Shown: positions 33,855 to 44,191 of the stretch, one piece after another | Layout of the letters: the number at the start of each line of letters is the position of its first letter | Position numbering within the stretch: the stretch's first letter is position 1 | NCBI GenBank assembly: GCA_016196035.1 | Contig: JACPYM010000055.1 | Location: 1-64,000, forward strand | DNA length: 64,000 nt | Reading direction: 5' to 3' | Source: Acidobacteriota bacterium | GTDB taxonomy: Bacteria; Acidobacteriota; Blastocatellia; RBC074 | Notes under the pieces: generated by a model | The model's database searches: none | Told to the model about the DNA's origin: nothing | The model's input: the letters and a program-made list of their open reading frames with translations, nothing else | Made by a program: the position numbers and the translations under genes

Positions 33855-33980
33855 ACCTGGGTACGCACCGCTTCCAGCGTGCAGTCTCGGCAATAGGCGC
33901 GCGAATGCCGGAGGGGCTTCCTTCCAGCATGGTTGTTTCTGCTCCCAAGCCTGCACGCTGGAAGCGGTGCGTACCCAGGT
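33855..33980. repeat. 126-bp repeat family, copy 2
   Basis: It has ends ACCTGGGTACGCACCGCTTC and GAAGCGGTGCGTACCCAGGT. It fills the space between convergent genes: the response regulator stop lies about 10 bases before it, and the mgtE stop codon (TGA on the minus strand) overlaps its right tip. A partial duplicate of the tip (GCCTGGGT) lies at 33845. Confidence 0.9.
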
Positions 33981-35456: not shown

Positions 35457-35582
35457 ACCTGGGTACGCAGCGCTTCCAGCGTGCAGACTCGGCGTGAGAC
35501 AGTTTGATGCTGAAAGGAAATTCCTCCGGCCTTGTTCTGTTTGCCGCCAAGCCTGCACGCTGGAAGCGCTGCGTACCCAGGT
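35457..35582. repeat. 126-bp repeat family, copy 3
   Basis: It has ends ACCTGGGTACGCAGCGCTTC and GAAGCGCTGCGTACCCAGGT and an internal GCTGAAAGGAAATTCCTCCG. The permease stop (TAA on the minus strand, 35583-35585) abuts the right tip. The C-to-G change relative to copy 2 occurs in both arms, so pairing is preserved. Confidence 0.92.
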
Positions 35583-43882: not shown

Positions 43883-44191
43883 ACCTGGGTACGCACCGCT
43901 TCCAGCGTGCAAGCGTGGCAACGGACGCACATCTGCTGAAAGGAAACCCCTCCGGCATTATTCCGTCTGTTGCCAGGACTGCACGCTGGAAGCGGTGCGT
44001 GGCTTTGCACAAACCGTCCTGAAAAAGGCGGGCGATTTGTGCAAATGAAATTTCTGCACAAACCGCTGACTCGTATCACAATGCAAAACAAAAGGGCAAA
44101 GCCAACCGATTTGTGCAATTCCAATTCGATTTATGCAATTCGATTTATGCAAACTGAGCGGTTTGTGCAAAGCCGCGGTGCGTACCCAGGT
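43883..44191. repeat. 126-bp repeat family, copy 4, interrupted by a 174-bp element
   Basis: The ends ACCTGGGTACGCACCGCTTC and TACCCAGGT match the other copies, and the core GCTGAAAGGAAACCCCTCCG is present. Removing the 174-bp insert and one 9-bp duplicate leaves exactly 126 bases, the length of copies 2 and 3. The right tip is eight bases from the stop codon of the S9 peptidase gene. Confidence 0.9.
44001..44174. mobile_element. 174-bp MITE-like element with 16-bp terminal inverted repeats and 9-bp target duplication
   Basis: The termini GGCTTTGCACAAACCG (44001-44016) and CGGTTTGTGCAAAGCC (44159-44174) are perfect complements. The 9-bp sequence GCGGTGCGT occurs at 43992-44000 and again at 44175-44183. 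The interior is AT-richer than its surroundings and repeats TTTGTGCAA/TTTATGCAA several times, which may be binding sites for a transposase. There is no gene inside. Confidence 0.93.

What the first reader, a model, noticed from the sequence alone, without database searches (positions are those of the whole stretch)
43883..44191. A 174-bp MITE-like element nested inside another repeat, with a clean 9-bp duplication
The 126-bp repeat copy 4 is interrupted by an element with 16-bp perfect inverted ends (GGCTTTGCACAAACCG) and a 9-bp direct duplication, GCGGTGCGT. Removing the insert and one duplicate gives exactly 126 bases. This dates one family after the other and provides the termini of an otherwise unannotated transposon, with several TTTGTGCAA-like internal sites.
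Basis: seen in the sequence. Interest (0 to 1): 0.78.

Follow-up and report, generated by a model that had tools for sequence, protein, structure and literature searches.

The report
MITE that targets REPIN palindrome arms
A tiny non-coding transposon has inserted, with a clean 9-bp duplication, into a second kind of mobile repeat (a REPIN), and nearly all of its sister insertions in the same genome hit the same spot in other REPINs, so it is one jumping element that specifically preys on another.

Summary
A 174-bp MITE (44001-44174, 16-bp perfect inverted ends GGCTTTGCACAAACCG) sits in a 126-bp inverted repeat and is flanked by the 9-bp duplication GCGGTGCGT. Searching the whole genome (9.59 Mb) adds what one copy could not show. 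(1) The host repeat is a REPIN: two inverted REP arms, about 140 of each arm genome-wide, a strong predicted hairpin, and a RAYT-type Y1 transposase gene flanked by REPINs on both sides. (2) The MITE appears to derive from IS5-family elements whose transposase has an N-terminal SWIM zinc finger; these share GGCTTTGC ends and 9-bp duplications. (3) Seven of eight distinct insertions of this MITE subfamily (six of seven without one decayed copy) lie at one position of a REP arm, GGGT|ACGCANCGC|TTCC; chance is about 1e-31. (4) They are independent: MITEs 100% identical sit in REPINs only 65-80% identical, and each duplication follows the host arm's allele. A sister 138-bp MITE with the same GGCTTTGCACAAA ends is never in a REPIN (0 of 7). 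IS elements that target REPs are known (IS1397, ISPpu9, ISRm22, ISNm1106); I found no report of a MITE doing so. New variant of a known kind.

The parts
43883..44191 (.). REPIN (126 bp when empty) interrupted by the MITE; REP arms CCTGGGTACGCACCGCTTCCAGCGTGC in inverted orientation
   Evidence: DNA hairpin -58.8 kcal/mol, z -13.3
43883..43911 (+). left REP arm (intact)
43972..44000 (-). right REP arm, inner part, up to the insertion point (remaining 8 bp of the arm at 44184-44191)
44001..44174 (+). MITE, 174 bp (160-bp family form plus a 14-bp tandem duplication), no transposase gene
44001..44016 (+). left terminal inverted repeat GGCTTTGCACAAACCG
44159..44174 (-). right terminal inverted repeat GGCTTTGCACAAACCG
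43992..44000 (+). 9-bp target-site duplication, left copy GCGGTGCGT
44175..44183 (+). 9-bp target-site duplication, right copy GCGGTGCGT
44032..44067 (.). subterminal repeats of the terminal core (GCGATTTGTGCAAA at 44032-44045; inverted TGCACAAACCGCT at 44055-44067), likely transposase-binding sites
   Evidence: own-core matches 3 against a mean of 0.025 in shuffles
44106..44119 (+). further copy of the internal site, CCGATTTGTGCAAT
44122..44149 (+). 14-bp tandem duplication CAATTCGATTTATG x2, found in this copy only
33855..33980 (.). uninterrupted REPIN copy in the window (empty site)
35457..35582 (.). uninterrupted REPIN copy in the window (empty site)

Best explanation
A non-autonomous DDE transposon (MITE), derived from an IS5-family insertion sequence whose transposase carries a SWIM zinc finger, is moved in trans by such a transposase. 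The transposase chooses a fixed 9-bp site, ACGCANCGC, in the arm of REP palindromes. Each REPIN (two inverted REPs spread by a RAYT transposase) thus offers two equivalent landing sites. Insertion duplicates the 9 bp and splits the REPIN hairpin, which probably ends that REPIN's own mobility. Shown here: the anatomy, the recurrence at one site, the independence of the events, the REPIN/RAYT identity of the host, and IS5-type relatives with the same ends and duplication length. Inferred: that target choice lies in the transposase, and that the internal repeats bind it.
For: Genome copies and junctions: C55 (window), C86, C53, C40, C113, C18, C4, C89 and decayed C104 all lie at GGGT|ACGCANCGC|TTCC of a REP arm. 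C40/C89 and C113/C4 may be two halves of two insertions, hence seven to nine events. One 160-bp copy (C2:47118) lies elsewhere with its own duplication ACGGCGCGG. P for 7 of 8 at the roughly 290 such sites is 1.8e-31; the shared register within REPINs alone gives 1.8e-11. Independence: C18/C4/C89 MITEs are 100% identical, their host REPINs 65.5-80.2%; the duplication follows the host allele (ACGCATCGC in C86, ACGCACCGC in C55 and C53). Parent: the C107 remnant carries the MITE-like end (82% over 65 bp) next to a DDE_Tnp_1 transposase fragment; its intact relative at C10 matches the NCBIfam IS5 model NF033579 (E 6.5e-32, below the curated cut-off) and Pfam SWIM; full elements in two relatives have GGCTTTGC ends and exact 9-bp duplications. 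REPIN.
Against: No autonomous element with the exact GGCTTTGCACAAA[C/G]CG ends was found intact; C107 is decayed and C10 has slightly different ends. Several copies stop at contig ends or have lost one end, so their junctions are one-sided. No transposition was observed. The REP junction was not found in other genomes of the class, nor as more than chance matches in 84,980 species genomes, so the behaviour is known from one genome.
Confidence: 0.86

Rival explanations
1. The MITE and the REPIN move together as one 300-bp compound element.
For: The same architecture recurs at seven or more loci.
Against: MITEs identical to the base sit in REPINs only 65-80% identical; insertions occur in either arm and in both MITE orientations; the duplication copies the local REP allele.
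Confidence: 0.02
2. Insertion is near random and only insertions in REPINs survive, because REPINs are neutral intergenic ground.
For: REPINs are multicopy; the window copy ends 7 bp before the stop codon of a convergent peptidase gene, in intergenic DNA.
Against: Every REPIN insertion is at one base position of a 124-bp unit (P about 2e-11), and the sister 138-bp MITE with the same end sequence survives outside REPINs, 0 of 7 in REPs (Fisher P 0.0014).
Confidence: 0.05
3. The transposase recognises a short motif such as GGT|ACGNNNCG wherever it occurs; REPs are hit only because they hold most clean copies of it.
For: The single non-REP copy lies at GGT|ACGGCGCGG, which shares GGTACG...CG with the REP arm; in the window 6 of 8 matches to GGTACGNNNCG are REP arms.
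Against: From the window's density (2 non-REP matches in 64 kb) about 300 non-REP matches are expected genome-wide, roughly as many as REP sites, yet 7 of 8 events hit REPs. This fits a longer motif or a structural preference, but numbers are small.
Confidence: 0.3

Closest known systems
IS elements that insert specifically into REP sequences (IS1397, ISKpn1, IS621, ISPpu9, ISPpu10, ISPa11, ISPsy8, ISRm22, ISRm19; preference in ISNm1106 of the IS5 family); Tobes and Pareja 2006, PMC1525189
   Same: Nearly all copies in one genome sit inside REP palindromes; includes IS5- and IS4-family elements; the transposase is thought to set target choice
   Different: Here a 160-174-bp non-autonomous element, in a genome unrelated to those studied; the paper does not mention MITEs
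REPIN/RAYT system (Bertels and Rainey 2011, PMC3116915; Nunvar et al. 2010, PMC2817692)
   Same: Inverted REP doublets forming one hairpin, high copy number, RAYT gene flanked by REPs
   Different: This is the host, not the insert; the arm's head reads GGGTA rather than the classic GTAG/GTGG
IS5 family, IS903-like ends
   Same: DDE_Tnp_1 transposase, ends beginning GGCTTTG, 9-bp duplications (IS903's own ends and duplication are from general knowledge, not tested here)
   Different: SWIM zinc finger at the N-terminus; below the curated NCBIfam cut-off for IS5 (111 of 140 bits)
Bacterial MITEs derived from IS elements (for example MITEAba12, PMC6382973)
   Same: Short, non-coding, terminal inverted repeats, fixed-length target duplication
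   Different: Strict target site inside another mobile repeat

Membership tests
MITE | short non-coding element with terminal inverted repeats | tested here: met
   174/160 bp, 16-bp perfect ends, no transposase gene
MITE | target-site duplication of fixed length at several copies | tested here: met
   9 bp in C55, C86, C53 and C2; also in 5 of 7 sister 138-bp copies
MITE | ends shared with an autonomous element | tested here: inconclusive
   C107 remnant shares the end (82% over 65 bp) beside a broken transposase; no intact element with identical ends found
IS5 family (parent element) | DDE transposase matching IS5 models | tested here: inconclusive
   Best NCBIfam hit is IS5 (NF033579, E 6.5e-32) but 111 bits is under the 140-bit cut-off; Pfam DDE_Tnp_1 is over its cut-off
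IS5 family (parent element) | GGCTTTG-type ends with 9-bp duplication (IS903 group) | tested here: met
   L127: ends differ at 1 of 16, duplication AATCACTCG; L134: ends differ at 2 of 16, duplication AGTTCAAGC
REPIN (host repeat) | two REPs in inverted orientation forming one hairpin | tested here: met
   -58.8 kcal/mol against -21.6 in shuffles; 44 distinct paired copies in fetched loci, mostly 123-124 bp
REPIN (host repeat) | high copy number, no target duplication | tested here: met
   137 + 140 arms at up to 2 mismatches; only 1 of 44 copies has even a 10-bp repeat shared between its flanks
REPIN (host repeat) | cognate RAYT gene flanked by the REPs | tested here: met
   C59:128610, NF047646 87 bits over the 80-bit cut-off, REPINs on both sides; none at the other 13 Y1_Tnp loci
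REPIN (host repeat) | GTAG/GTGG head before the palindrome | tested here: not met
   The arm begins CCTGGGTA before the palindrome. This argues against the classic GTAG superfamily of REPs; the REPIN assignment rests on the doublet, hairpin and RAYT
REP-specific IS | all or nearly all copies at the same site of REPs | tested here: met
   7 of 8 events (6 of 7 without decayed C104)
REP-specific IS | transposase sufficient for REP targeting | not testable with these tools
   needs a transposition assay

The most novel reading that the evidence does not exclude
One MITE subfamily evolved strict specificity for the arm of a REP palindrome while its sister 138-bp subfamily, with the same first 13 bp at each end, inserts elsewhere. 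Target choice would then have changed recently within one family of SWIM-type IS5 transposases, giving a parasite of a parasite that disables REPINs as it spreads.
Probability: 0.45. Interest if true: 0.55.

Novelty: new variant of a known kind. Interest (0 to 1): 0.45.

Why it matters
REPs are known landing sites for full insertion sequences; here a MITE does it with single-base precision, and a sister family with nearly the same ends does not. That pair is a natural experiment for finding which part of a DDE transposase picks its target. It also means that REPIN populations can be eroded by a second mobile element.

Tried and rejected
Co-mobile compound: rejected by unequal divergence. Random insertion with survival: made unlikely by the single register. 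Outer repeat as a DDE-type MITE: rejected; no target duplication and a cognate RAYT. Full-length transposon with the exact MITE ends: unpaired GGCTTTGCACAAA matches at C2:28038 and C75:25998 lie in unrelated, coding-like sequence, C53:58861 is a related degenerate element, C59:8612 a truncated end. REP/MITE junction elsewhere: the five exact matches in genome contigs do not continue as the MITE end and look like chance; the G001 and G156 matches likewise. Weak MITE matches in G007 and G076 were short (38 and 29 bp); the G007 one looks like coding sequence, the G076 one was not examined further.

Full report
OBSERVATION. The element occupies 44001-44174; its 16-bp ends are perfect inverted repeats, and GCGGTGCGT occurs at 43992-44000 and 44175-44183. 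Taking out the insert and one duplicate leaves 126 bp, the length of the two clean copies at 33855-33980 and 35457-35582. The arm sequence is expected 0.02 times per window by chance; six matches occur.

THE OUTER REPEAT IS A REPIN. Its arms, CCTGGGTACGCANCGCTTCCAGCGTGC, occur 137 and 140 times on the two strands of the 9.59-Mb genome at up to two mismatches. The 126-bp unit folds as single-stranded DNA at -58.8 kcal/mol against -21.6 in shuffles (z -13.3). In 44 distinct complete copies among the fetched loci the unit is mostly 123-124 bp from CCTGGG to CCCAGG, with sharp borders and no target duplication. Of 14 Y1_Tnp genes in the genome, one (C59:128610) is flanked on both sides by these REPINs; its 226-aa product passes the NCBIfam cut-off for REP-associated tyrosine transposase (87 bits, cut-off 80). 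These are the features given for REPINs and RAYTs in PMC3116915 and PMC2817692. The classic GTAG head is absent. Smaller populations of the same arm occur in several genomes of the same family.

THE MITE FAMILY. The window element has relatives in two sequence groups, about 72% alike: the window type (C55, C86, C53) and the 160-bp type (C40, C2, C113, C18, C4, C89), the latter 99-100% identical to each other. The window copy is 174 bp because of a private 14-bp tandem duplication. Four contigs of the assembly end at or inside 160-bp copies, as expected of recent identical repeats. A sister MITE of 138 bp (one copy 199) shares GGCTTTGCACAAA at both ends; five of its seven copies have exact 9-bp duplications of unrelated sequence.

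SITE SPECIFICITY. Every copy of the first family except C2:47118 and the truncated end at C59 lies at GGGT|ACGCANCGC|TTCC of a REP arm: C55, C86, C53, C18, C40, C113, C4, C89 and the decayed C104. C40/C89 and C113/C4 may each be two sides of one insertion, so the count is seven distinct events at least and nine at most; without C104 it is six at least. With about 290 such sites in 9.59 Mb the chance of 7 of 8 is 1.8e-31, and the shared register within REPINs alone has P 1.8e-11. The sister 138-bp family has 0 of 7 in REPs (Fisher P 0.0014). The non-REP copy sits at GGT|ACGGCGCGG, sharing GGTACG...CG with the REP arm, so recognition of base sequence is likely; whether the hairpin matters cannot be told.

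INDEPENDENCE. C18, C4 and C89 carry MITEs identical over the 114-141 bp compared, in host REPINs 65.5-80.2% identical; C55 and C86 carry MITEs 94.9% identical in REPINs 77.9% identical. The duplicated 9 bp follow the host's own arm allele: GCGATGCGT on both sides in C86, GCGGTGCGT in C55. Insertions occur in either arm and in both MITE orientations. The parts do not travel together.

PARENT TRANSPOSON. At C107 a remnant begins with the MITE-like end (82% over 65 bp with the 160-bp type) and runs into the 3' part of a transposase gene with a DDE_Tnp_1 match. Its intact relative at C10 is a 421-aa protein with a SWIM zinc finger and DDE_Tnp_1; the best NCBIfam model is IS5 (NF033579, E 6.5e-32, below cut-off). 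Relatives occur in 44 of 162 genomes of the class. Two full elements there have GGCTTTGC ends and exact 9-bp duplications, AATCACTCG and AGTTCAAGC. In most elements examined the subterminal region repeats the element's own terminal core (2-4 copies against under 0.1 in shuffles; C10's internal copies match C10's end and not the others; the G149 element has only one weak match), which suggests transposase-binding sites that change together with the ends. Similar ends and 9-bp duplications are known for IS903 of the IS5 family (general knowledge, not tested).

MECHANISM. Most likely a SWIM-type IS5 transposase acts in trans on the MITE ends and joins them to staggered cuts 9 bp apart in the REP arm. 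The anatomy, recurrence and independence are shown. The role of the transposase in target choice is inferred by analogy with IS1397 and ISKpn1, for which experiments point to the transposase (as stated in PMC1525189). Splitting the arm should disable the REPIN; this is inferred.

NOVELTY. Insertion sequences that target REPs are established, including one IS5-family member with a preference (ISNm1106) and an IS4-family element with all copies in REPs (ISRm22) (PMC1525189). That paper does not mention MITEs, and full-text searches for MITE insertion into REPs found no case (the library lacks most subscription journals). Hence: a new variant of a known kind.

LIMITS. One draft genome without a name; no intact autonomous element with identical ends; no experimental transposition; the junction was not found in other genomes of the class or, beyond chance, in 84,980 species genomes.

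Noticed in passing
L179:464-4804 (G000:C10, about 127464-131804): A 4341-bp transposon with ends GGCTTTGCACCAAAAGTC and a near-perfect 9-bp duplication (GCAAAAGCC/GCAAAGGCC) carries the SWIM-IS5 transposase plus an 816-aa fusion of Mrr-type restriction endonuclease and N6/N4 DNA methylase, and a small NikA-like protein: a restriction-modification gene as transposon cargo.
   Followed up: partly
L002:1348-1377 and 1672-1701 (G000:C86): The REPIN that hosts the C86 MITE is flanked by a 30-bp direct duplication, CACTCTTCCAGCAGCTTCCCCGCGAACAGC, which the 44 other REPINs examined do not show.
   Followed up: no
L100:4166-4645 (G000:C107): An IS200/IS605-like Y1 transposase gene lies directly next to the truncated SWIM-IS5 transposase, possibly the insertion that broke it.
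   Followed up: no
G000:C2:62327, C8:101034, C29:216852, C41:20717, C62:26005, C76:32429, C123:63528: Sister 138-bp MITE, nearly identical copies, with the same GGCTTTGCACAAA ends; 5 of 7 have 9-bp duplications, none in REPs; the C8 copy is 199 bp through an internal 61-bp tandem duplication.
   Followed up: yes
L007 (G000:C18:48844-48984): The C18 MITE has lost 19 bp of one end and one base of the duplication; contig C4 begins at exactly the same element position, as if the assembly graph branched there.
   Followed up: partly
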